Shown here piece after piece: positions 14,068-56,206 of a DNA stretch of 64,000 nt (positions within the stretch are counted from its first letter, which is position 1; each line of letters starts with the position of its first letter). The DNA lies in contig OZ014425.1 in assembly GCA_963965975.1 (NCBI GenBank), positions 1,439,501-1,503,500 of the forward strand, read 5' to 3'. Source of the stretch: Xestospongia bergquistia (lineage: Eukaryota > Porifera > Demospongiae > Haplosclerida > Petrosiidae). Below the pieces are notes generated by a model. It did not search any database and had not been told where the DNA came from. It worked only from the letters and a program-made list of their open reading frames with translations. The position numbers and the translations under genes are program-made.

Positions 14068-14128
14068 CCTTACAATGCAAGTAGGTTGGGCTTATCACGC
14101 CCACTTAAGATATACTTCCTATTAACAA

Positions 14129-14593: not shown

Positions 14594-14668
14594 TTTACCA
14601 CGTGGGTTTCAGGTATTCCTTAAATATACGGAGAGACAGAAATAGGATACTGTTAACATGTGTAAAAT
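14594..14668. promoter_or_regulatory. Short head-to-head promoter of MRPL32 and SETD7
   Basis: Only 75 bp separate the two divergent start codons, so transcription starts of both genes lie here or inside the neighbour. A CACGTG E-box is present on the MRPL32 side (accacgtgg, near 14599). No TATA element is clear. Confidence 0.5.
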
Positions 14669-15760
14669 ATGTCAGATAGAAATGAGGATCAAGTGATATA
14701 TATTGGGAAAAGAAATGCTGAAGGTCACTCTCATGGGCGTGGCACATTAAAATGGACAGATTCTGAAGTACGGTTTGAAGGTCGTTTTAATGATGGAACA
14801 AAACATGGAAAAGGATGTTTTTATTTTCCAGACGGTAGCACATTATCTGGTAATTTTTCATATGATAACTTGGAAGGCTTAGGTGTGTACACTTACCCAG
14901 ATGGTAGTACATTAAAGGCACTTTATAAAATGGGTGAATTGAATGGGGAATTCATAGAGTACGACAAAAATGGTGAAATTAAGGTAAAGGGTAATCATAA
15001 GAATAACCAAAGATCAGGATTCTTACAAGTCTATGATAACTATGGAGGGCTTGTAATGGGAATGGTTGATACTGATGGATCACTAACTGGAAATAATGTA
15101 GCCTACATTTATCCTGATCACAAACATGCACTAGTTGGTGAGTTTGTAAATGGAATAATGACTAATGCCATCCCAGCTATTCTAATAACTCATATTGATG
15201 AAGTACCACCAAAATTTGAATTAGACGAAAAAATTTTTGGCAGTCTAAGTTTCGATGAGTCCACTTCCAATTGTATTAGTAAATATCCTTTAATACCAGA
15301 TGAATATGAACAGGCTAAAGTGTATGTTGCTACTTCCTCTATTAAAGGAATTGGGGAAGGTCTTTTTGCTAAAGAAGACTTACAGAAAGCAGAAGTAATC
15401 TCCTTTTATAATGGCATCCGTCTTACACACGAGGAAGTTGATGCAAGAACTTGGCAAGACAATAGCAATACTATAAGTTTGGATGAGCATACAGTTCTCG
15501 ATGTGCCCAGCAAATATGCTTCAGTGAATACTTATTGTGCATCTCTTGGTCATAAAGCTAATCATTCTGAGACTCCAAATTGTGAATATGCTGAGTTTTA
15601 TCATCCTCGATTTGGACTTATTAAATGTATAAAAACTCTTGAGGCTGTAGCAAAAGGAGCTGAATTAACATGTGATTATGGCTATAGCCATAAAGATCCA
15701 GGAACTGGAAAAGATGATTTACCTCAGTGGTTTCTTGTGAGGAATCTTAAAAATGTGTAA
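14669..15760 (+). CDS. SETD7: Histone/protein lysine methyltransferase SETD7
   Basis: Lysine monomethyltransferase using S-adenosylmethionine; known animal targets are histone H3K4 and many non-histone proteins. The protein has 363 residues, close to the usual 366, in a single exon. The N-terminal half carries MORN repeats (GRGTLKWTDSEVRFEGRF, GKGCFYFPDGS, GLGVYTYPDGS). The SET domain starts around residue 215: KGIGEGLFAKEDL, EVISFYNGIRLTH, the SAM/active-site motif LGHKANHSETPNCEY, HPRFGLIKCIKTL and the C-terminal ELTCDYGYSH. The NH and Y residues of the pseudoknot are intact, so activity is expected. Lack of introns is notable beside intron-rich neighbours. It sits between the full receptor and its kinase-less paralogues, on the opposite strand. 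Confidence 0.95.
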   Translation: MSDRNEDQVIYIGKRNAEGHSHGRGTLKWTDSEVRFEGRFNDGTKHGKGCFYFPDGSTLSGNFSYDNLEGLGVYTYPDGSTLKALYKMGELNGEFIEYDKNGEIKVKGNHKNNQRSGFLQVYDNYGGLVMGMVDTDGSLTGNNVAYIYPDHKHALVGEFVNGIMTNAIPAILITHIDEVPPKFELDEKIFGSLSFDESTSNCISKYPLIPDEYEQAKVYVATSSIKGIGEGLFAKEDLQKAEVISFYNGIRLTHEEVDARTWQDNSNTISLDEHTVLDVPSKYASVNTYCASLGHKANHSETPNCEYAEFYHPRFGLIKCIKTLEAVAKGAELTCDYGYSHKDPGTGKDDLPQWFLVRNLKNV

Positions 15761-16926
15761 ATTAACTATTGAATATAATCATAATGGTGAAATCATGCAC
15801 AGATCATTTTACTAGGAATTGAAGTTCTAGGAATGATTATCATTACCATACATTTTATACATAACTATCTGTGTATGTTTGATGTAATGCAACCAACTGG
15901 TTACATATTTATAATTGGTACATGACCATATATGTGAATTATTTATAGAAGACTAGTGGAATTGAGGGATGCACAGATGTGCCTAAAGATACTTTGAGCA
16001 TATACATTGTGTACACATGCTAAGGATAGTCAAGTTGAGTCCAATGTCATGAAAATACACATTGCATAAATTTGTCTCATTTTAATCTGGACCATGTCTT
16101 TGTTATCATATTAGTCAATCCCAGACCAAGTAAGCTTTAAGTAAGCAGTCAGATACAACTCAGTTAACTTAAATATCAATAATCCTTAAATATGCATCCT
16201 AACTTTATTCCATTACTATATTGCTGTCCACATACAGTAATATCAATATCAGTGAAATTAGTTATTTATAATTACATATTTTCCAATTGCACATGCTCAA
16301 GTTTACTTTATACTGATCATCAAAATATGTAGAATACTATAATGTTTTCTTATAGTATCATGCTATGCATGTACACTTATAAGGCAGTGTATTATTTCAA
16401 TAAGGACAATCAGATATATAATAGTTTCACCAATATTATAATGTGCAGACCAATATTGAGTTATATATTAATAAGCCTAAAGTATTGTGTGGTTCACTAC
16501 TTAAGACAAACTAATATGAAGCCAATTAGAATTTTTTGTAGTGTGTATTGGACAATAATTATACTATTATATTTATCTCATGCTTATGGCTTCAATCATG
16601 TTGAAGCCATAAGCATAAGATAGGTAATATTCCAAGCTAATCATCTGAATGCACGTAGTTATATATCAGCAAACAATAGTACAGTATCACCATATATGGA
16701 GACTAAATAATCTAACAATTAGTTTTTTTGTAAAATGGTATAATGATCAATGAAATCACTAATTTTTACAGCAATGATACAGCCAATTGATGGACTTAAT
16801 GTATGTTTTGTTTTGATTATGCATGGTGCTGACCAATCCACTGTGTATAATAACTTAAGAATGAAAGGAACATGGAAATGATCGCTAAAATAAATAATTA
16901 GAAAAAACACATAAAGACAAATATGA
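15761..16926. other. Intergenic region with a 20-bp hairpin
   Basis: AT-rich region between the SETD7 stop and the convergent stop of kinase-less receptor A; it should hold both 3' UTRs. The only clear structure is a strong hairpin with arms 16576-16595 and 16601-16620, 19 of 20 pairs, five-base loop. Short open frames here (16342-16623 plus, 16719-16910 minus) show no recognisable domain. Confidence 0.6.
16576..16620. repeat. Strong hairpin downstream of SETD7
   Basis: Two 20-base arms (16576-16595 and 16601-16620) pair with one mismatch around the loop tcatg. The arms contain atgcttatggcttcaa. The length is at the short end for a microRNA precursor and resembles a fold-back repeat; no flanking target duplication was seen. 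Confidence 0.7.
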
Positions 16927-18060
16927 TTAATAATTTGCTTGGAATTTAGTCATTTCAAGAGTTGAGAGAACAGCTTCTTGTTTTCTTTTTGAGAATTGTT
17001 TATAACAATAACCAAATAAGACAACAAATAAAAGAATTCCTGTTAGAAATACTGCAAATGCAAGGACACCCATAACAACTGTAAAAACAATAGAAGCAAT
17101 CTGTAAACTTTGTGATTAACCACAAGCATAATGATTTTGAAATTGAAATATCGAGATAGGTATAATACAGACATAATAAATTCATGACAAGAGGATAAAC
17201 AAATAAAATGCCTGGACCTCAGCCAAAAGTAAGCATCATATATGAATATAGACTATGCTTAAGTGAATAAAATATTTAAGCTATATTTTACTTATAAGAA
17301 CATAAAGTAAAGTACTGTACTTACTATTCAAAGGACCTTCCAATGAATTGGGATTATTACGTAGGATATTAGATGGTAAGTCATTGCCGTATATAGATGT
17401 ACTTATTGATACAATTGATAGAGGTGTTTGTGGTGATTGTGGTATCAGTGTACTATGGTCCGATGATGAACTAGTGGTTACTGATAGTGTCCTATCATCA
17501 TTAGCTGACATAGAACTAGTGGTTACTGATGGTGTCTTATCGTCATTAACTATTATTGAACTAGTTAGGGATATTAATGATGAACTAGATGCACTAGAAA
17601 TATTTCCTGTTACCATGAAAGTGATGTTGATTTTTTTCTGACAATCATCTTCATAGCAACGACAAATAACATCAAGACCAATGTTTTCAACAGATGTAAC
17701 TTCAGAGTAGAGATGAAGACAGTTAGGTATGACAGGATTACCATCAATGTTTGAACAATTTGTGTGTCGACTTAGAAATGAAAAATCAAGAGCTTGATAT
17801 TTCCACTGACCATTGTCGTTACGTCTGTCAACTAATACAAAACAGTATTTTCGATCAGTAACAACCCTTTCCACACAATTTGACGAATTTGATGGAGGTT
17901 CACAATACACGTTGTACAGCCATTGATTAATTTGTGACACAGTACAGTTTGGAGTTACACTTGGTAAACAACGTAGACATTTAGTAGCTGTACAATTCTC
18001 TATACTACTCAGTATACACGGAGAAAGGAGAACAACACACAAGATGACGAGAAGAAACAT
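16927..18060 (-). CDS. Kinase-less TGF-beta receptor paralogue A (predicted decoy)
   Basis: Predicted single-pass membrane protein of about 295 residues in two exons, 17325-18060 and 16927-17078. The signal peptide is MFLLVILCVVLLSPCILSS. The ectodomain is nearly collinear with that of the full receptor at 13-14 kb ([11 protein letters not shown] against [24 protein letters not shown] against [36 protein letters not shown]). A Ser/Thr-rich stalk follows. Exon 2 starts at tttttacag/ttgttatgg in the same phase 1 position as the full receptor's TM exon, gives TM IVMGVLAFAVFLTGILLF, and then ends after about 25 cytosolic residues (YKQFSKRKQEAVLSTLEMTK) at a TAA. No kinase exon lies downstream before SETD7. 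By architecture it resembles BAMBI-type pseudoreceptors that block signalling; that role is inference. Confidence 0.8.
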
Positions 18061-18128
18061 AATTTTGTGTAGGTTGGTGATTCTACTCCCACGTATTATA
18101 ATTATAAGCATAGAAGGAAAATAATTTA

Positions 18129-19009
18129 TCAAGTAATAGTATTGAGATTAATATCAAGAGAAAGAACATGATATTGTCTGATCTTTGATTTAAAACGGCA
18201 ACGACAGCCGAGAATTAACAGAACTGTAACACACACAACAATTAGCACTCCTAACAAGATCATAGTAATGATGTAAGCTATAATGAAAAGAAAAGGAATG
18301 TAATTAGGAAAAAGATTCAATTAGTAGTTATTATTATTATTATTATTCAGATGTGGTTATACTTACGAAGATTTCTGATTAATACAATATTGTTACCAAC
18401 GTGAGGGGTCTGTGTTATAAAAGTACTACTGGATATAATGACTGATGATAAATGATACATATTGACAGCTGGTGAAATGTAGAAAACTGAGGTAGATGGA
18501 CTTATTTGTGATACAAATACTTGACTTGTAGTTGAAATATTAATGTTCGAAGACTCTACTATCTTAACTGTAGCATTGATTCTCTTTTGACAGTCATCTT
18601 CATAACAAAAACATACAACATTCTGACCAATATCTTTTAATGTTGGAACTTCATAATAGAGGTGAAGACAATTTGGTAGGAGTTTGAAGGTGTCGTCTAT
18701 ATTGGAGCAATTTTGATATTGTTGAAATGAAAACTTTGAAGCCTGATATCTCCACCCTCCATTGTTATTGTCTCTGTCAATGAGCGCAACACAAAAGTGA
18801 TTAATACTAACATATTCTTCAGTGCAATTTGAAGGAGCTTTACAATACAAGTTATATAGATTAGAGGTCTCTAATGGCGAAATAGTACAATCTGGGACTT
18901 CATTATTTAAGCACACGATGCATTTATTGGCAGAACAGTTCTCAAATTTCCCCAGGGCAAAAGGAGAAAGAAGAACAACTTGAAAGACATACAGCACTAT
19001 TATAACCAT
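18129..19009 (-). CDS. Kinase-less TGF-beta receptor paralogue B (predicted decoy)
   Basis: Predicted membrane protein of about 263 residues in two exons, 18367-19009 and 18129-18277. The signal peptide is followed by the same ectodomain pattern but more diverged: ENCSANKCIVC, LYNLYCKAPSNC, NCLHLYYEVPTL, CFCYEDDCQKRINATVK. A Ser/Thr-rich stalk lacking the 13-residue repeats follows. The second exon is joined in phase 1 and encodes TM YIITMILLGVLIVVCVTVLL, a CRCRFKSK basic stop-transfer and a short tail (QYHVLSLDINLNTIT) with a TGA stop. Only 68 bp separate this stop from the start of paralogue A, so the pair is a tandem duplication. No kinase sequence is present. Confidence 0.82.
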
Positions 19010-19102
19010 CTTGTGCTGATAAGTGTGGGCGTGGTTACCACGCCTGTTATATTAATATATGACAACAATACTGTATTTTTTTATTATAATGTATAATACT
19101 GA

Positions 19103-38564: not shown

Positions 38565-41176
38565 AAGAGAGAGTCATATCAAGCGCACAATTTAAATGTT
38601 CCACAAGAAAGCATTTAAATACAAAGATGGAGCCTCGTGTATCAACTATTTTCAATAAACACAGGCTCACATGTTATTCTCTTGACATTACAATACAATC
38701 AAAACCCTTCATTAATTCACTATCAACACATTTTAAACCTGAATGGTTTCATGGTTTTATAATTGAATAGAGAGACATAATTGAGATAAAGATGCGTGGA
38801 TGACTGCCTTCTGAGACCATGTGATAAACAAACAGGAACATTATTACAACATTTCATGGCTAATTTATACTCTAAATATTTCATGCTTAATTTACGACAT
38901 GCATACGTGTGCTTTTCAATAGTAACAGAACTTAGCTTGGTGTGTGTGTGTGTGTGTTAACTCCTCCAGTTCTAATAATGTTATGAGAATCTGGAGTGAT
39001 AATTTTCCAACTGACTAAGGCTGAGGTATGTCGAGTTTATCCCACATCACGTACTAATGTTACGCTATGGACTATATAGTAAGTCACTTTGCCCTCACAA
39101 GGGCTATGATCACACACAATGCTTGTTATTGAACCGGAAGATTAGTGAATATTATGATATTAATAGAACAGGCAATGTATGACCAGTCCATCTGTTTGTC
39201 TATCAGTCTGTGTGAGGTATATAATCAATTTATCATCAAGGAAGCCATTCCTTTGGGTTTGTTATAATCGGACGTGCAGCAGTGATGATCTTTTTATGTA
39301 AATTTGATGTATTTGTCTCGTCACATACTCTTATCATGTTTTAAATACACTTGACAAAGCTTTGAACCATGAGTAAACATAACGATACATATAACCAATA
39401 TCATTATCGTGATAGACAGAGTGACATGCTCTATATAACTTGTTGTATGCTTCTCCTCTCAAACTTGTAGTGAATGTAAATTTGTGTATGTGTTCAAAGC
39501 ACGTTACTTGTATGGAATTACAATTTACACTCAATTGGATTACACATTACATATAGCTGAAGTTACATGGATGATTAACTTACCCTTGACTTCAATGTTG
39601 CTTATTGGCAATGTAGTAACACTGCTATTGCTTGGCCCAGGAGAGGATGAATTCGAGTGAGCAGATGGAGAGGTAGAGAATATAGGATGATGGGTGACTT
39701 CTTCTGGCTCCCCACGAGACATCATTGCAGCTTTGTCAATGTTGGACGAAGGCATATTAGGGGATGGATTATCAGGTATATCAACCGAGGCTGTTCTGGT
39801 ACATTGCAGCTGGTGATGATAGCTGGGACTAGGCTCCTAGACAAAGAAGGACATTGTAATTAATGGACCACAAATTACAATGACATCATTGACTAACCTG
39901 ACATTCAGCAATAGTTGATCCAGGAGTTATGGAAGGGATAACACCTGATGCTCCGAAAGAGTTGGCAGACGAAATAGGAGGTACTGTCGGATACACAAAG
40001 TACGTTTGTGGTTGGAAGGAAGATGTTGGTACACTAGCAGATTGTTGACTAGTTGTGGGAAAAACTGCAAAAAGTTTATTTGTTGGATCCAGAGGTAGAT
40101 TGTGTTCTAGGTGGTTCTGACCTGGATAGCAACTGCTCTCAGCTGATGGGAAAGTCTGGGAGCCACGAGAAGTACCAGAAAACCCAGTAAAGAAAGGTTG
40201 TTGGGGAAGGTTGTGTCCATAATGTGATGGTAGTAAGCCCACTCCTGGATTGCTATGAATGAATGTTTCAGGTGTACCTTGAAGAGTTTGCAAAATGGAA
40301 AAATGGCCAAGAGCAGCTTTTTCTTGAAAATGTTTTTGTCGTTGTTGAGCTCGTGTTCGAACGATACGATTTATAGAACTAACAGAAGGGACGTTAACTT
40401 TTGTGCACACACCTTCTGTTAAGAGACGATCTCTAATTTCCCATGCAAAAATGCTAGGATTTTCACGTTTATAGTCTTCAATCTTATTGACAACTTTAGG
40501 AGTTGCAACTTTTGGCTTGCTACCTCCAATAATTCCAGGCTTTACCGATCCAGTTTCGTAAAATCTATAATTACAGATTGATTTGTTAAATGATATTATA
40601 CAAATGATGTCATCGTACTAGTGCAGTGTGTCGCCATTTTGACACAATATTTACTCTTGTATTTTCACAAGAGCAAAGCTCTTGTTGCAAAAAAGCCTTC
40701 ATGAATATAATTATAAGAATATGAATATAATTAAAGATATCGTTAGCCTTCTGAGTTTACATTATACCATATCAATTAACAAGAAATGCTCATTTCTATG
40801 GGTTGCAAAACAATACATATTGACAAGAATAAAGCATTAAAATGTTTAAAATGTCTCTATTGTACAAAGAATATAATCTATGTACCAATAAAACTACGTA
40901 ATTACATGGGCCATCAAGTTATATTTGTAAATAAACTCAATCATAACAAGTTAAAAATTATCATTACAGCAATATTCTTGCTAAAGCTTACCTTCCTAGA
41001 ATTTTACTAACGCATCCATGTGATACTCGTAGTTGGCGACTGATGTCGCAAGGACGGACACCGTTTTGAGCCAATTCCACTATCTTTCTTCGTATCATAT
41101 CTGGCAATGGACGTCCGTTTACAAAGACTCCTCCAAGTTGATTCACTCCACCTTGACCAGCAGATCCTTTCGCCAT
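35876..41176 (-). CDS. Pax transcription factor, PaxB/Pax2/5/8-like, with degenerate homeodomain
   Basis: DNA-binding developmental regulator of about 570 residues. Exons (approximate): 40993-41176, 39898-40564, 39582-39836, 38402-38526, 36334-36533, 36051-36250, 35876-35959. Exon 1 starts [16 protein letters not shown] and has the PAI half of the paired domain ([42 protein letters not shown]). Exon 2 gives [18 protein letters not shown] and the RED half ([20 protein letters not shown]). [10 protein letters not shown] after it may be a relic octapeptide. Exon 4 and the start of exon 5 form a homeodomain-like fold: [42 protein letters not shown]. The basic N-terminal arm is missing and WFxNRR reads WFAERR, so invariant Asn51 is Glu. 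A Ser/Pro-rich tail follows. An upstream Met at 41227 is also in frame. Confidence 0.93.
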
Positions 41177-41990
41177 GATTGTCGTATTAGTCTTGAAAGT
41201 AATTGTTGCTTCAATAGAACTGTACATGTGGAGACGAAAATGTTACATTGAGTTGTAATGCTGCATAGAGCACTAGACTTAAGTCTACTTGTGGGAGTAC
41301 AAAACAAACAAGAAAAAACAAACTCTATAGTTGGAATCCTTTTGAAAGAGAAGCCCAGCTCTATAACTATTTCTTCCAAGCGTGTACGTAGTACATATAT
41401 ATATATATATAGATATATACTATATGGAATTGCGCAGTATGTTCAGTTGCAAATTAGGAGCTAGGATAATCCATTCTACTCACTTACTTGCAAGGTTGGC
41501 TGCACGTCACTGGAGATGCAAGAAGTTCGATCGAAGTCAGTCAAAATACAGCTCCTAAAATATGCTTGACTGCTCTCAAGGGACTGTGCAACAGCTCATA
41601 AAGCAGTAGTCAACCCACGTGTAATAGCGTACATAACTAATCTAACCACTATGGAATGTTAAATATTAATTTACTGCAGTACGTCCTCGCCCCATTACAG
41701 TAAAGAGTTAAAAATTGCCGCTGGTTTAACCACTGAAAAATATCGTACGTTAATTCACATTCTGAGTAGGCAAAGAAAGAAAAGAAAATCAATTAAAACA
41801 CAAAAACATCATACATTACAGATGAAACAAATAATGATATAAAATAGAAAATTCAATGAACGTAATGAAAGGTACAAAAAAAGATTGCAATATCTTATTC
41901 TATGGGTTTAACAACACATTTATTTAAACATAAAAGATAATTATGTAAATACTGATTGGTGAAGGAAAAAGGACAATTACTAATAACCCA
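41177..41990. other. Region between Pax 5' end and activin-receptor 3' end
   Basis: Holds the Pax promoter and 5' UTR on the minus strand (near 41180-41600) and the 3' UTR of the receptor gene is expected just left of its own stop, inside the next gene's side. A short (TA)n run is at 41397-41411. No gene is seen. Confidence 0.4.
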
Positions 41991-43538
41991 TCACAAAGAT
42001 GTCTCAGTCAAATTTTCATCAACTTGATGAGTACTGTTACTTGTTAGATTGTTCAGATTTTGTTCAGTAGAATTTTTTGGTCTTCTGTGACGTTCTAATG
42101 AGTTGTCAACACTTGTACTGTAAAAGGAAGGAGGTGTGGTGTAAAGTACATCCAAACTAGATAATTCTGTTGGACGATTAGAACGGTGTGGACTAAATTC
42201 CAAAGAATTGTTTAACGGATAAGGAAGGTCTTCCATATCAAGACCTGGTCGATGAGGTGAAGACGATACTGAAGGGGGGTATGGTGGTGGATAAGACCCC
42301 AGTGAAAAATTTGGCCCCCGGGGTTTGAGATCTGTGGGTGACATAGTTATACTTGGACTATAGCTGGATGTTGGCGTGGGAGGCAGGGGTGTATTAAAAG
42401 TTAGGGAGTCTGAATGTGGAAGAATGGTGCCAACACTTTGGTGAGTTCCCAGTGATAAAAACCCAGATTCCTTACTAGGACGATTTGTTAGGTTGGTAGG
42501 TGGGTCAACAAACCGATGGAATTGACCTAAACGGGCCTCAATAAGATGAGCAGTCGGTCGAGCTTCAGCATCTGGGTCCCAGCTCTCATTGATAGTATCA
42601 ACTACTATATCATAATCCTAGCAATATAGAAATCAATAAAATGATCATTATTACATCATAATATAACCTGTTATTATTAAGACTACACTTTACATCCTCT
42701 TTTTAGTATGCATAATACAGAACTCATTAGGATTTTATAAATAGCAGGTAGGGAACAGCTGCCTATTATATACTGTCAGCAATATTTTGCAACCATCTAT
42801 CACAATACATAATAATAGCACAAATGGTGACATAAGTGTTCCGAAAAGATTGTATAATATCTATTGGGAAATCTTAACAATGATCCTCTTGATAAGTTCC
42901 AAGATATACTTACTAGAATATAGTGTCGATTATGAGTTCTATCATAGCCACTTGGTATGAGAAACTAAGTAACTTCAGTTAGTTTAAACAATAATAATTA
43001 AAGTCAAAGTTTCAAGACATGGTAACTCATAAATTATAACAGCAATTACATCAAGTGAACAATTAATATTTTGTAAGCACTTTTTCTACTTAAAAAGTAT
43101 TAAAAAATTCTTCTATAAAATAGGCCAACAGTTCCATTTAAAAAGACAACACAGATACCACCTAACAGAACCACATTATTGACTGACTAACTACATGCTT
43201 AATGCAGCTGTCATATGATACAGTTACTAGCCATATCTACATTACCATTCTCAAGGAGGTGTTATATAATCATGTGATACCAGTCTGAAGGAACTCATTC
43301 GATACAGTTATTATGGTCATGTTTGCTAATGGTCCTATGTGGTTGTTATGTAATCTCCTTAAAATGTCAACAACAGTTACTATATAGAAGTGGAACCATA
43401 CCTGGTTTAGGAGAAACCCTTGAGGGATTGCAGGCCTCTTTCTTTCATCAGCTACTACTTGTTTCATCTCATCAATGGAAGGATTAGGTGAAACCATCCC
43501 ATCGAATGGCGGATAATACTCACTGACAGGACCTAGGG

Positions 43539-43585
<47 letters not shown>

Positions 43586-43592
43586 TAAAAAT

Positions 43593-43635
<43 letters not shown>

Positions 43636-43642
43636 TAAAAAT

Positions 43643-43716
<74 letters not shown>

Positions 43717-45329
43717 TATATACTGCCTTTAATAAAATCTGTCAATTCATTGTTTACAGCCTTCATGTTTGTCTCTGACACCATTTCTATGCCACTTAAT
43801 TTATTAAATACACCATGCAAAGTTTTGATAATTCACAGATATTTTAATTCCATGCCACATTAACCAGTAACAAAGGCCAAGGCAGTACCATAACATCAAC
43901 CCAGAAATTCAAATCAACAATGAGCATGAGTACTAGCATAGTATGCACGAGTGCATTTCATAACACATAACTTAGGCTTCTAAGAGCTTGGAGGCCGGAC
44001 TAAACATACTCCTTCTAAAGCCACAATGTTGTCTCTGCCACTTGGTAGCTCCAGCCACTTTCCCCTTTCTCTCTCTCTCCCACTATAAGAACCTACTGTC
44101 ATCTTTACCACACAGTTTATCTACCCAGCCATCTGTGACCTCCTTACACAAATGCACTCTATCTGTACATACTAACCACCTTTTCAAATATACATTAAAC
44201 TACTACACTTATTTTAAATCTATTAACCTCACAGATCCATTAATGATAAAAGGTACAATGAATGTCAAAGGAGTGAAAATGATTCATTGATTTCAAACTT
44301 TGATACCTCTTTATTGTGGCCAGAACAGACTGCATGAAAGGTGAAGCCAACTTTTAAACCGTTGCTATGGAAACTACAGTGTACTTGAGGAAGAGGGGGA
44401 GAGAGAGAGAGGGAGGGCCAATTTATTTAACAGCTGTTTGCTTGAATCATAGGGGCTTCAGTATGTGTGTATATGATAGGATAAAGGGTCCATTATCTCT
44501 ACTACTAGACTATTAGAAGTCTACTAAAACTATTAAAATATAAGAGCCATGAAAACAGAAAATAACTATCTCCTAAAAATGATACTATATTTATGGACAC
44601 TTCACTATTAAGAAATAGTTTTAATATATTATAAAGAAATAGTTTTAATATATTGTGGTAATACTTTATATTAAGGCACCTCTAAAATATGGTAAAGATA
44701 ATTTACAAGCATCAGAACGAATTAAAAAATGGTTATTTGCTTAGTATGAGGTTAGTGGTGGTGGTGTTATCTGTAATTAATAAAAATAAAACACAATATG
44801 TGCACAAAGCTGTGACCATGTTGTGAGTACATTCTTTACTAATTAATAGTATGAAGTTATGCAACACAAAGCTGATCAAAACAAATGTATATGTAATATT
44901 ATATATGTGTATGTATATGTGTGATAAAGGAATACTTGGTGACATATGTCTTGACTAATATGGTTCTGTTTTGTGTTTTTGGTTGAAGAGTTTGTGAGCA
45001 TTAGTCTGTGAGAGATAAACTAATAAAAATACTACATATCAAGTTATACAAGCAACTTATAACATATCCACGCTACACCATTTCTTCTAAACATTAAATA
45101 TAATTATATCATTTTATAAACAATGTCAGTGTAAAACACTTCAATTGCTAACACTTAAAATAATTATAAGATTATGTCATTATTTCATCATTTACTAACA
45201 TGATTTATGTTATGTGCAGGAACTTCAGGTCATAAAGTCATTTATAATTTAAAAAGTCAATTAATTACATTATATATAATTATAAATGAAGACTTAAAAT
45301 GCTCTTTACACCAGACATGTACTTTATCC

Positions 45330-45367
<38 letters not shown>

Positions 45368-46226
45368 TGCACCATATCCTTTCTAATAATAACAATTGTA
45401 TCTCTAATAAATTACATTATCAATCCTTCTTCCCCAAACTAGGAAACAATAATAACCAAATGCACAATAAAAATTTTATTGTCACCTGTAAACCTCAGAT
45501 TGACCTGGCATTTCCCAGACTATTATTTCCCAGGCTATTTCCTCAATCAATGGGTTGGTCTGGAGTGTAACTAATGGCACCATAATGATTATGAAGCATG
45601 CGATCTTAACCTTTGACTTCCTTATAAGGGAGTAAGGGGACACAAGTTCATACTTATGACAACTTTCTGAAAAGTACTTAATAACTACTTACAGTTTCAA
45701 TGACATCATTTAATAACCACTAGTACAAGTGTGTCACACAAAAAGAAAACATTTTTAAGAGATTAAGGCTGTAAACTGACCACACGAAACCTTAGTAACA
45801 TTCCCAGCACATGCAAGTTAGATTTGGTGTTATACTATTGGAGGTTAGTCAATAATGTGACCAAAAGCTTTTATTGGTGGTCTAGAAGCCTACAAATATA
45901 ATAGCATTGTCAATTAGAGTTGTTTATTTTCTATCAAATTTTAGATTACAAAGGCTTTAGCAGGCTTCATTTTTGCAATGACATGTGCCTTTTTTTGAAA
46001 TGAGAGTAAATATAGAATTTGAAACATCTATCATCTTATCTCTTGATCAAGGTGGAAAAATTATCTAATGAACTAATTATGTGACAAGAAAGGAATGTTC
46101 CAATTCTTAACAATCTCTCCTCCAAATTAACCAACAGCTGATGATACTTGATGGACCATGAAAGTCTAGATCTACTCCCCCTTTGACTCTAACTCCCACT
46201 ATGAGGAAATTACATGCACATGCGCA

Positions 46227-46266
<40 letters not shown>

Positions 46267-49200
46267 ATCGTGCATTTAAGAGTTCTCTGAACCTCTCATA
46301 CATAAAAGTATATTTAGCAAATGAAGTCCTTAATATCAAAGTCATTATTGTTTTCGAACAAAAAAAACTAAGAAAAGTGGCAAAGAAAATTATTGAGTCC
46401 TTAAATAAAAATATTTCTCATATCTGATAATTACTATAGTTACATTGATACACTTACTACATATAAGATATTATAGAAAATATCTGTTCAATACAAATGC
46501 TAGACCTTTTTATATTATAATGATTTAATAAATCAAAGTTGTCTACTAAAAATGTGTCATCAACCATTAAAGCAAGGCTACCATCTTATAAACAAAAGGT
46601 TCCTACTTGCAACCACGACAGGGTATGTAAGTCTCCTAGGTTCAATTCCCAGCTAAACCAGTTTTTTTCCTCTGATTTTATGCTTCAATACCAAAATACA
46701 CTAATGGTTATCTTGAAATTTGGATGTAAAACTTACACAAGTCTAAGGAGACTTATGACAGAATCCAATTGTCTAAATATTGTATTAACTACAACTATAT
46801 TTACTCAAGTGAGTCATTATTTAATCCACTTAAATGTCTCATTGACTGAATCCAATGAAGTGCAGGAACTAGGTATATCACGTACATACTCAGAGAAGAC
46901 CTTGATAGATGGGACCCACTCATCAGCCATATGTTTATGAGTACAATGAGACTAAACCAAGAGGAAGTCAGCCTTGTGTAATGACAGGATCAAAAATAGA
47001 TTATAGATTATGGTCACTCAAGTAAATCATTATATAAGTACTTAATGCCTCACTGTCTGAATACCTAACATACATATGTGCTCTACAGGAACTAAGGTGT
47101 ACCACATACACTCTCAAAGGAGATTTTCCCACAGTTATGATATCACAAGGAATCCATTCATGTAACATATGTTTTATGAGTACACAGAGACTACACCAAG
47201 GTTTGTGTGTGATGATTACAAGATAAGGAGAGTTGTCATAGTGCCATGGTGGTAAGATCTGGTGTCTTCAAATTTCAAATACAAAGGTCACCACAATCTT
47301 TGCAAACTACCACTATAGGATAGCCACTACAAAAATTTAGAGACAATCTTAGCAACTACAGATGTCTCAAGTCAAACTTTATAAGGTTTCCCATTTGAAG
47401 ATAAACAACCAATAACATTTAGAAATAATTTGAAGTGTTTTGCAAATGCATACCTTGCTGTTGCCATATTAGGAATAAATGAGTTATTCTAAAAATAACT
47501 TATACAAATTAAATCATTAAAACAATTACTATAAATAGAACAGTGTTCAAACTAGTTTACTGTCTCTTCATACAAACCCACCCACCCACTCTAATTACCT
47601 TTTATAGCTACTCTTGAGTCAAACCTCAAACTCAATTACTTGTACATATAATTACCCTCCAACTTTACCAAGACTTTTCCAAAGAATTGATGAGGGAGGA
47701 GCTAGACTTATTGCTAACGAAACAAAAAACACCAAATCATTTCCCAAAGGTAATTCAAAGGACAAGATATATTATCGGACTAAACCAACAACATTGTATA
47801 TAGTTGTCTAAAGTCTTAATCTTTTTTATCTGGATCAATACCTCCTTATAAGGCAAGCTACAAAGCTAATTCAAAATTAATTGAATTCCTCACATTCTTG
47901 TGGTTCTTTGGGTAGTACTTGTAAGTGGTACTGACCATCCTGTACACAACTACACAACAAATCATACCAGTATACAGAACCAGTTTCAGTAGCAAATTAT
48001 ACCACTTACTGCAAACATCTAAGTATGATTTTATTAATAATGTATGATCTCTTAGTATACTAATAATTTCCTGAGCACAAACCACAAACGTTTGTATATC
48101 CAAAGGCTCAAAACAATTTGGTCATTGTTTGATAAACCACGACACTTAACAGATACTTCTCTTATGAGGTATCCACAAAGCACCTTTAAAGTGTGTAGAT
48201 TACTTTAATGACTTGATACAAAATGGATACTTTTTATATTTCTTTAAATATAATAACATTACAAGTATTGTGATTGACATCAGCATGAACATGGTAACCT
48301 ACACCCTAATTTATCAGTATAGGAGTGTCAATGACAATTGTCACATGATCAAATCAACACAACCACTCCCATCTGTATAGGAGTGTCAATGATAATGATC
48401 ACATGATCGAATCAACACAACCACTCCCATCTGTATAGGAGCGTCAATGATAATGATCACATGATCGAATCAACACAACCACTCCCATCTGTTTAGGAGT
48501 GTCAACAATACAATAAGCATGTTTATACTAACAGTTCCAAAGTCCCTATTACTCCTACAAACCTCTCCTCCTTAATTGCTCAACCACAAAACAAATGTAC
48601 CTCATCATCAATTAAAAAGGGGAAAACCTCATCTTAAATTCTTTCTGAAGTCTTCTGTGTACTCAGAAGAAAAGATTAGTAATTATGGCATTACTAGTGT
48701 GTGGTCAGGTGATCTAATATAATCTTATAATTTGTGTATTCATTGTAATGGTTAGACAATAAAATACCAATTAGTCATATAATCTAATAAACAGATTGTG
48801 TCGGTGAGTCTCAGGGAGTGGTCATTAACAAACATTTCACTGTCTCCTGTAATTATTCCTTTTTTTCTTCCTTTTTATTTAATTTTGTTTTTTATTTAAA
48901 AATCTGTATGTTAGGTAACCTTCGTATTCATGACCACCTGTAACCTACTCTGTTTTCATATATTTTTTACACTCCTATTATTGACCAGTGGTTTGTGTAA
49001 TGTCAAATATGATGACAATATGATAATGGAGCCGTGTCATCAACAAACATGGGCATTGACTCACAGCTCTGTAAGTCATATTGAAGCTCTTTGTAAAGTT
49101 TTTAAGATGTTCTGTACTGATTCATTGTTGCGGGATGTTTTATTTGTTTATAAACATTTTTGTAGCAACTGCAGAATGCACATGACATCATGTAACATTG

Positions 49201-52200
49201 GAATACAAAAAAATGTTATCCACTTTATGACATTTTTTATTGCACCAATTACCTATGAAGATAACACTAAAACTTGGGAATAATTAAATCAGTGTTGCAA
49301 AGGCTATTGAATAGTACGAATTGTTTTGTTTGTAGCATTTTCTTAGCCTGAGTTAAACACTAGAGTCAAGGATTAAACTCAAACTGAACAGAGTAACACT
49401 TTGTTTTAACAATGTAGATCACAAAGATGATCACAATGAATGGTTGTTATATGGTAAGTGTAAGTACTTACTGTTTAGTATTTCACAACGAGACGCAATC
49501 TCCCACAAGATCAAACCAAATGCATAGACATCAATACGAAGGAAAGACTCTTGATAAAAACTGATAGCTCCCTCTAAAACTTCTGGTGCCATATACCGAC
49601 TTGTACCAACCTATAATATATAGGAGACAACAGTATATCACAGTGCAACAAATATAATAATATATTAGATTATTATAAAACTTGGCACAAACTACTCTAA
49701 TGTTGAAAGTTGAAGAGTTTAAAATAACAAAAGCTAAGAAGAAATTTCGTAAGTTATAGAAAACCAAGACTTTAGTCAATCACATCTAAGTTGTGGCAAT
49801 TTGCAGAAACATAAATTTAAAAACATTGTTTGATAATCATGCTGGCTTATTAACATATTTTTTCCTTGGCTATGATAGTATATTAGAATAAAATGATACA
49901 CATTGATTGACTCTATAAATTCTGAGTACTTAACTCATAAAGAATTATTAAATCACAAATAATAAATTTTCTTCAATCAAATTTACCTGGCCTTGTGCTT
50001 CAATGGGTTGTTCCCCCGGACTGAACTTAATGGCTAGGCCAAAATCACTAATACAGCAATTCAAATCAGCTTTTACAAGAATGTTTTTACTCTTTAAATC
50101 ACGATGAGCTATAGCTGGTTTACACATGATACCATTACGAGGAAAATCTGAATGAAGGTGGGCCAAACCACTGGCTGCTGACTCAGCAAAACTACAGAAT
50201 TGTTTCAGTGTCACAGTGTGTGTTTGTAGGTAGTCATATAATGATCCATGGGGATGGTATTCAAAGATAAGCCAATAAGTATCCATTCCTTCATGAATAC
50301 GCTGATCATGATTGATAAAACGCAAAATATTAGGATGACGAAGGTGTTCTGTAGAGTAAATGTCTTTCTCTTGACTCCAGCTCTCACGAGCTTGTAGTGT
50401 GTTGTTAAAAATTTTAATAGCAACTTCCTCCATTAGTTGAGCATGATAAACACGCGCAAATCGCCCTTGACCAATGATTTTGTGAAGGTGGGGCTCCATA
50501 GAGAGAACAGGTGACTCTGGTTTGTCCTGTACAAGGCCAACATTCCTTCTTCTGTCTGAGATACTTTTCTTCATTGAAAAATGAACTATCACAAGACAAA
50601 CAATGATGCTAATGCATAGGAACACACCCACTCCGGTAAGCACACCAAATATGGTTATATAGACGTCAGTAAGTGATGCTGAAGAGAACAAAATGAATTT
50701 TACTTATTTTATCTGCTACTTAACCCTGTAATATAGTTAATTATTTCATTTTCATAGGGGGAAGGAACTACTTGACCCTGTAATATAGTTAATTATTTCA
50801 TTTTCATAGGGGGAAGGAACTACTTGACCCTGTAATATAGTTAATTATTTCATTCACATAGGGGGAAGGAACTACTTGACCCTGTAATATAGTTAATTAT
50901 TTCATTCACATAGGGGGAAGGAACTACTTAACCCTGTAATATAGTTAATTATTTCATTTTCATAGGGGGAAGGAACTACTTAACCCTGTAATATAGTTAA
51001 TTATTTCATTCACATAGGGGGAAGGAACTACTTGACCCTGTAATATAGTTAATTATTTCATTCACATAGGGGGAAGGAACTACTTGACCCTGTAATATAG
51101 TTAATTATTTCATTCACATAGGGGGAAGGAACTACTTGACCCTGTAATATAGTTAATTATTTCATTCACATAGGGGGAAGGAACTACTTGACCCTGTAAT
51201 ATAGTTAATTATATCATTCACATAGGGGGAAGGAACTACATTCACATAGGGGGAAGGAACTACTTGACCCTGTAATATAGTTAATTATTTCATTCACATA
51301 GGGGGAAGGAACTACTTGACCCTGTAATATAGTTAATTATTTCATTCACATAGGGGGAAGGAACTACTTGACCCTGTAATATAGTTAATTATTTCATTCA
51401 CATAGGGGGAAGGAACTACTTGACCCTGTAATATAGTTAATTATTTCATTCACATAGGGGGAAGGAACTACTTGACCCTGTAATATAGTTAATTATTTCA
51501 TTCACATAGGGGGAAGGAACTACTTAACCCTGTAATATAGTTAATTATTTCATTCACATAGGGGGAAGGAACTACTTAACCCTGTAATATAGTTAATTAT
51601 TTCATTCACATAGGGGGAAGGAACTACTTAACCCTGTAATATAGTTAATTATTTCATTTTCATAGGGGGAAGGAACTACTTAACCCTGTAATATAGTTAA
51701 TTATTTCATTTTCATAGGGGGAAGGAACTACTTGACCCTGTAATATAGTTAATTATTTCATTCACATAGGGGGAAGGAACTACTTAACCCTGTAATATAG
51801 TTAATTATTTCATTTTCATAGGGGGAAGGAACTACTTGACCCTGTAATATAGTTAATTATTTCATTCACATAGGGGGAAGGAACTATTTAACCCTGTAAT
51901 ATAATTAGTTTACTTAATATAATTAATTAATATAATAATAGTTAATTAATTACTTACTAGTACTACTGATTGAATTGGCTGTAGGAGTTGGACTAACAGA
52001 CCCAATTACAGACGAGTAAAAAGAGGATGTGCTCACTAGCTTGACTTCAGTAGAGGACACAGTTGGAATAACTGGAGATATTGGCGGAAAGATTATACGA
52101 CTTTCAAGGTTACAAATATCACTCTGACAACAGCATTGGTAATGAATATCATCAATTAGTTTCAAAGTACAATTGGTATTTCTACATCCACCCAGGCCTC

Positions 52201-55200
52201 CTGTATACGCAGAAAATATGTAAATACAACATATGTACATATTATATAGATACATTGGGTATTAATACATTATTTATTACTATAGTATCATCATAATACA
52301 ACATATAGTATATCGAGGCTCAAAGTATTGTATGAACTCTTCATTTTAAAATAATTATGACATCATTGTTGTGATATGCTTTCTAGAATTTTATACTATT
52401 AACAAGAATTATAAATCTTCTAATTTTAATAACAGTCCAATATACTTAGAAAATCAATTTATAATATTGTTTATGGTACTCTCTAGTTAAAAGGTCTGGT
52501 GGGCGCGACAAACTTTTGAAAACTCCTTAAACTTCCCGTAAAATGTTACTCTCAAAAATAAAATACAATGTGAAAAGAAGTGTATTTATGTTACCTCCAA
52601 GACAGCCCATAAGTTGAGGAACAAATACTCCATTCTCAATAACATATACTGCAGTGCAAAAATGTTTTGAGTGATCGTCTTTGAGATCTGGTGGAACAAC
52701 CTGAAATAGAAGAGTTATTATTGTTAACATACAGATATACAAATGAATGGTATAGATGGAATATGGATGACAGATAGCAGGAACACTCCTGCAGATAACA
52801 ACAGAGGTGAGAGAAGTAATCTACTGACATTAGCACAATGTACAGTGTCATAATTATCACATTCAGATCTGTTATAACTATTACAGCTATAACTCATACA
52901 GCTGAGCCCATCATCACCTGGAAAAGAGAGAGAGAGAGACAGACAGAGAGAGAGACAGAGACAGACAGAGACAGAGAGACAGACAGACAGATACAGACAG
53001 AGAGAGAAGGGTATAATAAGTACAATAACTTCACATGCTATACAAAATTTTAAAATATACATTATGTATTTCCATTACTAAGAAAGTAATAAATTCTAAA
53101 TCTCCTACTTAAACCTTTCACTTACTAATACAAGTCTTTGTTGCAGGGTCCATAACATATCCTGGATTACAGTCACATTGGTAACCACCTACTGTGTTAA
53201 TACAGACTTGTTGACATCCACCATTGTTGATCAAACATTCGTTGATATCTAGAAAAGAAATATGTTCATATTAGAATTATATAATATTAACATGAGTCTA
53301 TAAGAATCAGAGAACGGGTCTCAGTCTCAGTAAATGAATTTATATGTATTGAAATATATACTCAATACAACAGTTGTGTGCTGTCTATCAAGCTAGACCC
53401 TCCTCTTTACTGATGAGCAAGAAAGGTCTAGCAAAGGTCACAATAGAACAGCTATTAATTACAGAAAGGAAATACAAAGAAGTCATATCATCAAACAGTT
53501 TTGTTGACTTTGTAAAGTAAGATATTAAAGAACTTACAACAGTCTACTTGCTGCCACTCACACATAAATTACTGACCAGATTTGGATAGCGAAATCTGAT
53601 TGGTCAACTATCAATTGTGACTTTTGCTAGACCCTTCTTTCTCATCTTCAAAGAGGAGGGTCTATCTTGATAGACTATAGTGCCCTTATACAGTGTGAGC
53701 AGCTGTAATAATTTTAAAAATGCTACCATATGTTATTTAAGCATGAAATTTTTAGACATTTATTGTAGTTAGAAGTGTGTGCAAAAAGTAGTGATAATTG
53801 GAGACATGAGTACAGTAGTTAATACTCCTTATTTGGTAGTGTGCTAACTATGTCAGATGCTGTACCACCAATATAAAGTCAAACAAAGAATCCTAATTTC
53901 ACATTATATGATAGATACAATTATTTGCATGCCTATGCATGCATAATGGAATACTCCATTAATATAATACATTCATTCACTTACCAACACATTGAGTCTC
54001 ATTGGCAAGTGCAAATCCATTGTCACACAAACACGAGGCAGCATTATTAACAATCAAACAAGAATGATTACAGCCTTTACGCTCACATACCTCCAAACCT
54101 AGAATATATAATTTAAAAAATGACAAATATATTTCAATAATCATCGTAAAAATAATAACATGTATTGGAGTCTGAAAAACTTTTTCCATTCTCCTAATTG
54201 GAGTGGTTTCCCATACAGTCCATCAGCCATTGGCAAACACTTTCTAACAATAATATGTTCACATTTCTTAGTAGAGAGGAATACACTAAATAGACTGATA
54301 TAGTCTTTGTGGAAGTTACAGTACTATAATTATTATATTCCACTATTATATACTAGTTATTGTCAATAACAAGTGTTAATATAAGTAATAGTTGTTTTGT
54401 CTGTTCAAGTTAGTAGAATTAATATGTTATGTAGATTATGAGTGTTATGTCAAAAAAAGAATATTTGTGTTGAAAAACTTGAGCTACGGAATAAAACCAA
54501 AAATAAACCTTTATCTGATACATTGGTAACTAAAATATGTTCATTTTAAGTTTGCAGCTGGAAGTCAGTGATTCTTTATTCACATCAATTTATATCGAAT
54601 ACTGTCAATAATAATACTTAGAAAATTCCACATGAATATCTATCAGAAAATTCACAAGAGTTAGAGGAGTCCAATAATAGCAAATTAACTTTGTAATAAG
54701 CAGTATACTAAAGTTAGTGTTTAAAAATCTATCTGCAGAGTCAAATGAAGTGGAATTTAATAGACTTGGTTTAAATTAATAGAGACATCGTTGTCAATGG
54801 TTTCTTGCGTTACTAGAAATAGTGGTAATTAATGTATTCTGACTTCCATCACTGCAAGTTATATAGTTCCAAGTATATCAATCATAGGGGATCATACATT
54901 TACTGAAAACAGTATTTATTTTAAAACAACTACATTACATTGTACTGACTCATCAGACGTTCACTCACCATAGGTAGACACTTCTGTAGGATGTGTAAAA
55001 GTTACATTTTGGTTACATAAACTGTTACCACAGCAACAATAATAGATATCATTTACATCTGCAACCAAAGGATTATCAATATGACAGCTGGTCAATTCAG
55101 TACAATTTTCTCCATGAATTTGAGTATACATACAGCCTTTGGTTTTAAGCTCCAATTTACGTGTCTTGGAGTTAATTTCATAAACTGATTGACAGGAATG

Positions 55201-56206
55201 ATCTTCAATTTTAGAATTGGCACCTGGAGGGGTTGTTGAACAGACTTCGTAGCCATGGTAACATAAATCTTGATTCCGTGAACAATTGTAAAACTCACAG
55301 ATAAGTTGATCTATATGATACAGCTAGATATAAATTTATAGTCCTAACGGTATTATGACAGCTGTATGAGGTCTATGTTGGTTTTTAAGACTGATCTCAT
55401 ATAAACCCTTTCAAGTAAGCTATGTCACTTACAAAATCACATTGTTAACGTAAATTGTAATCTGAGCAATCTTTGTAAACATAGTAAAGTAAATTCATAG
55501 TTCTTATTTAAATAATATTAATATAACACAATCTGATCCTGACATTATGTGACCTTTGTACTATTGATTGTTGACACATATCCAATTAAACAGCACTTAT
55601 ATACAGATGCCTTGCACAAACTTCTAAAACAACATGTTCCAAGCATATGCTGTAAGCCTTCACATAAGTTCACATGTAAATCACATGCACAGATTATTAT
55701 GGGTGGAGTTATGGGAGGAGTTTAAGTTTATTGCACAACTATTTAAAATTAGGATATGATATCATTATACAGAGACTGGAGCAAAATTACTAACTGAATT
55801 GAATCAATTAGCACTTTAATTAAAGGGACTCACCACTATCAGGAACAGGGACACTTGGAAGACTTGGACTAATACCATGAATGGGATCAATATGATCTGT
55901 CTCTCTGGCCACACGATTACAAAAATCTTCAGTACAACAACAATACATTAGACCAGAACTATGTGGAGCAAGAGGTGCTAAATTACACTTTGTATTATTA
56001 CAGTATGGTGATTTAGTACAACTAAGATCAACAGTTTGATTTACACCATCACGTAAATGTCTTATAGCATGGCAAGCCTCAGAACCAGTCGGACAGAGTT
56101 GAATGCAAACATCAACATTTCCTGGGCAGATAGTGGAGAAACATCGGAGACTGTTGGAGAGAGGAACAATAACTAACAGAAGAATCGAGATTGACAACAT
56201 TTTCAA
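41991..56206 (-). CDS. Activin type II receptor-like kinase with three three-finger domains and two EGF domains
   Basis: Predicted receptor of roughly 1000 residues over about 14 kb. Exon 55834-56206: signal peptide, three-finger module 1 ([10 protein letters not shown] to [10 protein letters not shown]). Exon about 54970-55314: module 2 ([15 protein letters not shown] to [11 protein letters not shown]). Exon about 53986-54100: EGF ([21 protein letters not shown]). Exon about 53129-53249: calcium-binding EGF ([25 protein letters not shown]). Exons about 52835-52917, 52586-52700 and 51958-52204: module 3 ([39 protein letters not shown]), then a Ser/Thr stalk. The TM/kinase exon is about 49987-50687 with [14 protein letters not shown] and SDFGLAI intact. 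C-lobe exons lie at about 49485-49612, 43403-43532 and 41991-42618 ([13 protein letters not shown]), with a Ser/Pro-rich tail. Ectodomain junctions are almost all phase 1, so modules join in frame. Type II by [27 protein letters not shown] and [10 protein letters not shown]. Confidence 0.85.
43545..43714. repeat. Long (GA)n tract in kinase intron
   Basis: About 170 bp of GA repeat with internal duplicated interruptions (gataaaaatagaaa occurs twice). It lies at the start of the 5.9-kb intron, directly beside the exon at 43403-43532, and forms its pyrimidine tract on the coding strand. Confidence 0.95.
45334..45366. repeat. (AAT)n microsatellite
   Basis: Eleven perfect AAT/ATA units in the large receptor intron. 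Confidence 0.95.
46226..46262. repeat. (CA)n microsatellite
   Basis: About 18 CA units in the large receptor intron. Confidence 0.95.
46609..47260. repeat. Diverged direct duplication with possible tRNA-derived SINE remnants
   Basis: Blocks at about 46795-46960 and 47015-47210 share a series of matching words in order (actcaag...tcattat, cttaa/tcttaatg..ctcattg/ctgtctgaat, gaactagg/gaactaag, catatgttta/catatgtttta, gagactaaaccaag/gagactacaccaag), so they are old copies of one element. A GGTTCAATTCC word at about 46639 fits a pol III B box, and atggtggtaaga with ttcaaatttc at about 47246-47277 is tRNA-like. Element family unknown. Confidence 0.5.
48318..48506. repeat. 58-bp tandem repeat in receptor intron
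   Basis: Three nearly identical 58-bp units (starting tataggagtgtcaatga and ending ccactcccatctg) plus a partial fourth. Non-coding. Confidence 0.93.
48930..49283 (+). CDS. Possible nested small secreted protein, antisense to receptor intron
   Basis: A 117-residue open frame on the strand opposite the receptor. Residues 1-24 read as a signal peptide (hydrophobic [19 protein letters not shown]). The mature part has several cysteines ([30 protein letters not shown]). It ends with TAA at 49281-49283. No homologue is recognised. It lies fully inside the 5.9-kb kinase intron, without a clear promoter. A chance open frame is possible; the signal peptide plus paired cysteines make it worth listing. 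Confidence 0.35.
   Translation: MTTCNLLCFHIFFTLLLLTSGLCNVKYDDNMIMEPCHQQTWALTHSSVSHIEALCKVFKMFCTDSLLRDVLFVYKHFCSNCRMHMTSCNIGIQKNVIHFMTFFIAPITYEDNTKTWE
50722..51900. repeat. 52-bp minisatellite, about 22 copies, in receptor intron
   Basis: Tandem array of a 52-bp unit (accctgtaatatagttaatt, then atttcattcacataggggga, then aggaactacttg). Copies differ at two main sites (cattttcata or cattcacata; cttgaccc or cttaaccc), and one truncated unit lies at about 51230. The array fills most of the intron between the stalk exon and the TM/kinase exon. Near identity shows recent expansion or homogenisation. Confidence 0.97.
52925..53006. repeat. GA/CAGA-rich simple repeat
   Basis: Imperfect agagac/agacag repeat directly beside the acceptor of the first exon of three-finger module 3. 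Confidence 0.9.
53381..53676. mobile_element. Fold-back/MITE-like element between the EGF exons
   Basis: Arm 53381-53446 (ctgtctatcaagctagaccc...) and arm 53613-53676 (...gggtctatcttgatagacta) are reverse complements over about 64 bases with roughly ten differences. The spacer is about 165 bp without coding potential. Size and long inverted ends fit a non-autonomous fold-back transposon; ends and target duplication are not clear. Confidence 0.75.

What the first reader, a model, noticed from the sequence alone, without database searches (positions are those of the whole stretch)
41991..56206. Activin type II receptor with EGF modules inserted between three-finger domains
Known TGF-beta family receptors carry one short three-finger ectodomain. 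Here the exons read signal peptide, two three-finger modules, EGF, calcium-binding EGF, third three-finger module, Ser/Thr stalk, TM, intact type II kinase. Nearly all ectodomain junctions are phase 1, which supports one gene built by exon shuffling. Three potential ligand modules plus EGF spacers suggest multivalent or adhesive ligand capture.
Basis: partly seen in the sequence, partly recalled or inferred. Interest (0 to 1): 0.88.

Follow-up and report, generated by a model that had tools for sequence, protein, structure and literature searches.

The report
Sponge activin receptor with five modules
This gene, probably from a sponge, encodes a growth-factor receptor whose outer part has three ligand-binding-type domains with two EGF spacers between them instead of the usual single domain, and the same layout occurs in several other proteins, one of them from a named freshwater sponge.

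Summary
Eleven exons on the minus strand (56200..41991) join through ten GT-AG introns into 990 aa: signal peptide, TF1, TF2, EGF, calcium-binding EGF, TF3, Ser/Thr stalk, TM, intact ActRII-like kinase. Six other proteins have the same order, three on 3.3-3.9 kb contigs too short for such introns, one a named Ephydatia fluviatilis entry: one gene, not two. Profiles of each TF module hit solved ActRIIA/B ectodomains first (E 7e-10 to 1e-4); Pfam's Activin_recp misses them.

The premise that such receptors carry one module is outdated: multi-module vertebrate receptors are published, and that paper credits sponge ectodomain duplication to a 1999 study (PMC13187141). I found no paper describing the EGF pair.

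Less expected: the genome holds two paralogs with the same ectodomain but a broken kinase signature (Lys to Ala, DFG to NFN/NFS), open, with dN/dS below 1: candidate decoys.

Best mechanism (inferred): TF3 signals; TF1-TF2 on an EGF rod tune ligand access.

The parts
55834..56200 (-). Exon 1: start codon, signal peptide, three-finger module TF1 (12 Cys), short linker
   Evidence: the TF1 profile of 7 proteins hits ActRIIB ectodomain first, E=1e-7
54969..55310 (-). Exon 2: three-finger module TF2 (12 Cys)
53985..54098 (-). Exon 3: EGF module 1
   Evidence: cEGF above cut-off, best stretch 258-278
53126..53248 (-). Exon 4: calcium-binding EGF module 2 (DINEC...[12 protein letters not shown])
   Evidence: EGF_CA 32.8 bits, cut-off 27; full cbEGF pattern present
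52829..52917 (-). Exon 5: first part of three-finger module TF3
   Evidence: junction with exon 4 matches P0104
52595..52700 (-). Exon 6: middle of TF3
51958..52200 (-). Exon 7: end of TF3 (CCCQSDICN) and Ser/Thr-rich stalk
   Evidence: TF3 profile E=7.4e-10 to ActRIIA
49987..50678 (-). Exon 8: transmembrane segment and kinase N-lobe to activation segment ([23 protein letters not shown])
   Evidence: (ActRIIA/B kinases best, E about 1e-81)
49472..49610 (-). Exon 9: kinase ([14 protein letters not shown]...)
43402..43532 (-). Exon 10: kinase
41991..42617 (-). Exon 11: end of kinase, tail, C-terminal ETSL (PDZ-ligand-like), stop TGA
41919..41924 (-). AATAAA, 66 nt after the stop (possible polyadenylation signal)
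50716..51907 (.). 52-bp minisatellite inside intron 7 (about 23 units; not coding)

Best explanation
One gene encodes a type II (activin class) TGF-beta-family receptor kinase with an ectodomain of five modules. Shown: the gene structure, the ActRII class of the modules, intact kinase motifs, and the same layout in other proteins. Inferred: it acts like any type II receptor, with a constitutively active kinase that phosphorylates a type I partner brought in by a dimeric ligand (the same genome has at least two type I genes with a GS box). The membrane-proximal TF3, closest to ActRII by profile score, is probably the signalling ligand-binding module. TF1-TF2 sit at the outer end of a short EGF-cbEGF rod, probably stiffened by calcium, and modulate ligand access, either pre-capturing or holding back ligand. 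The conserved C-terminal [ST]-x-hydrophobic ending probably docks a PDZ protein.
For: Splice-consistent model. Same order in 6 other proteins. TF profiles to ActRII structures. TF2 fold. Kinase best matched by ActRIIA/B with motifs kept. Two genes with a GS box in the same genome. Full cbEGF pattern in 6 of 9 proteins of this layout, the window protein included, with one residue between the last Cys of EGF1 and DINEC. Published triple-module fish BMPR2a: only the inner module binds activin A; outer and middle ones repress (PMC13187141 section 7).
Against: No transcript of this species was available. The hot-spot Trp of ActRII (W78 of ACVR2B) is missing at the aligned position in all 27 modules of the nine five-module proteins and in the 5 other sponge or unnamed modules examined, so bilaterian-type ligand contact is not shown for any module. 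TF3 is no better conserved among the six relatives than TF1 or TF2 (26-44% against 27-42% and 29-48% identity to the window protein), which does not single it out. Three of nine proteins lack the full cbEGF pattern. The full-length model of P0104 is weak (pLDDT 58.8, pTM 0.39) and says nothing about module arrangement.
Confidence: 0.55

Rival explanations
1. Avidity receptor: all three TF modules bind ligand and the EGF rod spaces them so that one chain holds several ligand faces or several ligands.
For: All three window modules keep the 12-Cys scaffold also seen in 3 of the 4 bilaterian ActRII modules examined, and all three persist in seven proteins. In PMC13187141 recently duplicated modules go with enhanced ligand binding, and a synthetic two-module human TGFBR2 binds more TGF-beta1, though with limited SMAD activation (abstract and discussion).
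Against: The modules are strongly diverged: TF1 groups apart from TF2 and TF3 (98/98, bootstrap not settled). In PMC13187141 fast-evolving outer modules go with inhibition. Hot-spot Trp absent.
Confidence: 0.25
2. The EGF pair is a built-in brake: it folds onto a TF module in cis, as DLK1 EGF5 covers the ligand site of ACVR2B in trans, and ligand must displace it.
For: Crystal structure of DLK1 EGF5-6 on ACVR2B, with competition for the ligand site (PMC12216052, abstract and passages). Here an EGF pair lies directly between TF2 and TF3.
Against: The DLK1 interface centres on W78 and F101 of ACVR2B; W78 is missing in every sponge module examined. No model of such an interaction was made.
Confidence: 0.1
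3. The EGF pair is an adhesive or matrix tether that localises the receptor.
For: cbEGF pairs are common in matrix proteins (recalled); fibrillins and latent TGF-beta binding proteins fill many rows.
Against: Those rows only reflect the EGF family. Two EGFs are few for a tether. No binding assay.
Confidence: 0.1
4. Two adjacent genes, or a separate short isoform starting in intron 4 with its own signal peptide, so that TF3-TM-kinase also exists as a classical single-module receptor.
For: Reading intron 4 through into exon 5 gives an in-frame ATG and a hydrophobic run in the window gene; C1 and C9 also have an in-frame ATG there.
Against: Six relatives carry the whole order in one protein. Exon 5 has an acceptor in phase. 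The hydrophobic run in the window is largely a pyrimidine-tract low-complexity repeat. My split: two separate genes about 0.02, an extra isoform about 0.1.
Confidence: 0.1

Closest known systems
Ephydatia fluviatilis receptor protein serine/threonine kinase (P0153, UniRef entry beginning Q9UA; that it stems from Suga et al. 1999 is my recollection)
   Same: Same order: signal peptide, TF1, TF2, EGF, cbEGF-like, TF3, TM, type II kinase, ETTV end
   Different: Kinase 47% and TF modules 29-33% identical; its TF3 has 10 Cys instead of 12; its second EGF lacks the full cbEGF pattern
Unnamed proteins P0104, P0105, P0001, P0107, P0109
   Same: Same order; kinase 51-71% identical
   Different: Species unknown to these tools; P0105 lacks its N-terminal end; its EGF hit stays just below the Pfam cut-off
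Dysidea avara activin receptor type-2B-like isoform X2 (P0106)
   Same: Sponge type II kinase, ETTL end, more than one TF module
   Different: Two TF modules and no EGF in this isoform
Vertebrate ACVR1, BMPR2 and TGFBR2 with two or three ligand-binding domains (PMC13187141)
   Same: Tandem ligand-binding modules before one TM and kinase
   Different: Independent duplications; no EGF modules mentioned in the parts I read
Bilaterian ActRIIA/ActRIIB
   Same: Kinase class, TF fold, C-terminal PDZ-ligand-like ends such as ESSL/ESSI
   Different: One TF module; hot-spot Trp present in 4 of 4 examined

Membership tests
TGF-beta-family type II receptor (activin class) | Receptor Ser/Thr kinase closest to ActRIIA/B with intact catalytic motifs | tested here: met
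   Best PDB hits 3q4t ActRIIA 1.2e-81 and 2qlu ActRIIB 1.3e-81, next TGFBR1 7e-69; [18 protein letters not shown] present
TGF-beta-family type II receptor (activin class) | No GS box in the juxtamembrane segment | tested here: met
   By eye: none in the window protein; present in the C13 pair as SGSGSGLP
TGF-beta-family type II receptor (activin class) | Three-finger ectodomain of the ActRII class | tested here: met
   Profiles of TF1, TF2, TF3: ActRII ectodomains first; TF2 model. Against: Pfam Activin_recp not passed by the window protein or its modules, nor by any of 7 relatives
TGF-beta-family type II receptor (activin class) | Binds a TGF-beta-family ligand and phosphorylates a type I receptor | not testable with these tools
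   Needs binding and kinase assays
Bilaterian ActRII ligand-binding mode | Hydrophobic hot spot around W78 and F101 (ACVR2B numbering, PMC12216052 passages) | tested here: not met
   Trp absent at the aligned position in all three window modules and in 32 of 32 sponge or unnamed modules; present in 4 of 4 bilaterian modules
Five-module type II receptors (type example P0153) | Order TF-TF-EGF-cbEGF-TF-TM-kinase | tested here: met
Five-module type II receptors (type example P0153) | Single origin (kinase tree) | tested here: inconclusive
   The nine fall on one side of one branch, but support is only 61/71
Multi-ligand-domain TGF-beta receptors (PMC13187141) | More than one ligand-binding domain on one receptor chain | tested here: met
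   More than one module of that fold class; ligand binding by each not testable
Kinase-dead decoy receptor (considered for the window gene) | Kinase absent or inactivated | tested here: not met
   Window kinase motifs intact; the two paralogs C1 and C9 do lack several

The most novel reading that the evidence does not exclude
This animal runs a receptor-decoy system built on one unusual ectodomain: an active five-module type II receptor plus two siblings (C1, C9) with the same five modules but a kinase lacking the beta3 lysine, the catalytic-loop lysine and the DFG aspartate, which hold ligand and type I partners without signalling. The EGF pair serves as a cis regulator of the ActRII-type modules, an old parallel to DLK1 acting on ACVR2B in trans.
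Probability: 0.12. Interest if true: 0.75.

Novelty: new member of a known kind. Interest (0 to 1): 0.45.

Why it matters
TGF-beta receptors are usually drawn as one small ligand domain on a kinase from sponges to mammals. This family shows a five-module type II receptor kept across several proteins, and domain annotation overlooks it because Pfam's Activin_recp finds no module in any of the eight proteins scanned. It is an old, probably independent case for the 2026 proposal that extra ligand domains tune signalling. If confirmed, the two siblings with broken kinase signatures would make pseudokinase decoys of type II receptors testable in an early-branching animal.

Tried and rejected

Papers on TGF-beta receptors with EGF modules in sponges: searches (7 papers; 5; 1; 1) returned none describing it; I opened passages of three of them (PMC6040629, PMC5684314, PMC8235796) and judged the rest by title or abstract. 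Searches (0 papers; 4; 8) were aimed at Suga 1999 and domain duplication; 44 brought PMC13187141. For pseudokinase type II receptors in sponges held 82 papers; only 10 were listed, none relevant by title, so that search is weak. Suga 1999 is not held, so I could not see whether it describes the EGF modules.

Of the 120 listed rows (2389 found, proteins under 545 aa excluded by the length filter) I fetched 10 sequences and had one (P0001); P0120 was fetched and not used further. Single-module relatives are therefore under-sampled.

Full report
Gene model. On the minus strand eleven exons from 56200 to 41991 join through ten GT-AG introns in a single open frame of 990 codons. I chose the boundaries by hand; the donors of exons 5 and 6 are weaker than the others. 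The order is signal peptide and TF1 (exon 1), TF2 (exon 2), EGF (exon 3), calcium-binding EGF (exon 4), TF3 (exons 5-7), Ser/Thr stalk (exon 7), TM and kinase (exons 8-11), and a tail ending ETSL. Phases are 1,1,1,1,0,1,1 for the ectodomain junctions and 0,1,0 for the rest. An AATAAA lies 66 nt after the stop. A 52-bp minisatellite lies in intron 7 and GA-rich runs in introns 4 and 9.

Is it one gene? Six other proteins show the same order: P0104, P0105, P0001, P0107, P0109 and P0153. They are 906-974 aa long; P0105 lacks its N-terminal end. P0104, P0105 and P0001 lie on contigs of at most 3.3, 3.9 and 3.5 kb, while the window gene needs 14.2 kb with introns, so I infer spliced RNA for these; P0107 and P0109 lie on 6.2 kb contigs, and for P0153 no contig is given. 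In one search these are the 6 of 120 listed rows with both kinase and EGF domains; 2389 proteins were found but only 120 shown, and a length filter removed proteins under 545 aa. Junction residues agree closely between the window model and P0104. P0153 is a named Ephydatia fluviatilis entry, so a receptor of this layout is already in public databases. P0106 of Dysidea avara (isoform X2) has two TF modules and no EGF; P0161 (Corticium), P0191 and P0111 have one.

Against the reading. Reading through intron 4 into exon 5 gives an in-frame ATG and a hydrophobic run in the window gene, and an in-frame ATG before exon 5 in both paralogs. A short isoform with TF3 alone is thus possible. The ActRII hot-spot Trp (W78, PMC12216052 passages) is absent in 32 of 32 sponge or unnamed modules and present in 4 of 4 bilaterian ones, so I cannot claim that any module binds ligand in the known way. 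The nine five-module kinases form one group in the tree, with weak support (61/71). Halisarca dujardinii receptors are described as containing 'the extracellular receptor domain', with no multiplicity noted in the passages I saw (PMC8235796), so the layout may not hold across all demosponges.

Paralogs in the same genome. The genome holding the window (146.5 Mb, 21 contigs) has two further genes of the same layout: C1 (882 aa) and C9 (1101 aa), rebuilt by hand from loci L018-L021. Both are open throughout, all 11 introns are GT-AG, and the phases equal those of the window gene plus one extra phase-2 intron in TF2. Their kinases have VSIAVY in place of VAIKIF (beta3 Lys to Ala), HRDIN in place of HRDLK, NFN or NFS in place of DFG, and have lost the first Gly of the glycine loop; the HRD Asp is kept. 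They are 73% identical to each other over 864 codons, with dN/dS 0.44 overall, 0.34 in the ectodomain and 0.51 in the kinase region. This argues for constraint, but a pairwise average cannot exclude recent relaxation. I read them as candidate pseudokinase decoys. In the kinase tree they group with the window gene and P0104 (93/100, not starred). A divergent pair on C13 has a GS box and, among the frames I listed, one ectodomain module each: type I receptors.

Mechanism. Type II kinases are constitutively active and phosphorylate type I partners (established knowledge; also stated in PMC8235796). In the fish BMPR2a with three modules only the inner one binds activin A, and the outer two repress (PMC13187141 section 7). 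In other vertebrates extra modules go with enhanced ligand binding (PMC13187141 abstract and discussion). By analogy TF3, next to the membrane and best matched to ActRII, is the likely signalling module, although it is not better conserved than TF1 or TF2. EGF1 and cbEGF are joined by one residue before DINEC, and the full calcium-binding pattern is present in 6 of 9 proteins (WIN, C1, C9, P0001, P0107, P0109; not P0104, P0105, P0153), which suggests a stiff spacer. DLK1 EGF5 covers the ligand site of ACVR2B (PMC12216052), so a cis EGF brake is conceivable but lacks the Trp that DLK1 uses. The C-terminus fits [ST]-x-hydrophobic in all nine five-module proteins; 52 of the 119 proteins P0104-P0222 end so. 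PDZ binding itself is recalled knowledge of ActRII.

Prior art. PMC13187141 (abstract, outline, sections 7 and 10 and passages seen) reports 12 independent duplications in vertebrates and states that ectodomain duplications in sponges and oysters had been described, citing Suga 1999 and Herpin 2005. Suga 1999 could not be read. PMC8235796 and PMC5684314 (passages seen) list sponge type II receptors and mention no EGF modules in them there; the one passage of PMC6040629 concerns choanoflagellates. Searches for the EGF combination in sponges returned no paper describing it.

Species. Not told. By kinase the best named relative is Dysidea avara (4.7e-88), then a starfish (1.2e-83); Ephydatia follows at 1.1e-76. 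Dysidea at the top and the layout shared with Ephydatia make a sponge likely.

Verdict. A real, well-formed gene and a member of a conserved family with published kin in kind. The siblings with broken kinase signatures and the missed Pfam annotation are the parts worth following.

Noticed in passing
L018-L019 (G000:C1:6781699-6791923 +) and L020-L021 (G000:C9:2375293-2366332 -): Two open paralogs with the same five-module ectodomain and kinases that lost the beta3 Lys, catalytic-loop Lys and DFG Asp/Gly; candidate pseudokinase decoy receptors.
   Followed up: yes
L021 (C9 paralog, last exon): The C9 tail carries 11 copies, counted by eye, of a 24-residue acidic repeat (like EEEINTRESEIQRHAIGLEENEAQ), of which C1 has about one; both tails keep a PDZ-ligand-like end.
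   Followed up: no
window 10544-19051 (-): Tandem array of three related signal-peptide plus Cys-rich ectodomain exons (copies 2 and 3 are 60% and 48% identical to copy 1). Copy 1 continues into TM and a receptor-type kinase; copies 2 and 3, by eye, splice to a TM exon that soon ends in a stop, so they look like kinase-less membrane receptors. Their profile hit no PDB chain.
   Followed up: partly
L022-L023 (G000:C13:5660721-5664487): Two TGF-beta receptor-like genes with GS box (SGSGSGLP) in head-to-head orientation, ectodomain exons about 0.6 kb apart, kinase exons about 2.5 kb apart.
   Followed up: partly
G000:C13:5733397-5733495 +: A 33-residue kinase match at 61% identity inside a 286-residue frame; possibly another receptor gene.
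   Followed up: no
window 39886-41186 (-): Frames that look like paired-box (Pax) exons, recognised by eye without a search, directly downstream of the receptor's 3' end on the same strand.
   Followed up: no
window 50716-51907: 52-bp minisatellite of about 23 near-identical units inside intron 7.
   Followed up: partly
window 52829-53125 (-): Intron 4 read through into exon 5 gives an in-frame ATG and hydrophobic run that could serve as an alternative signal peptide; C1 and C9 also have an in-frame ATG there.
   Followed up: partly
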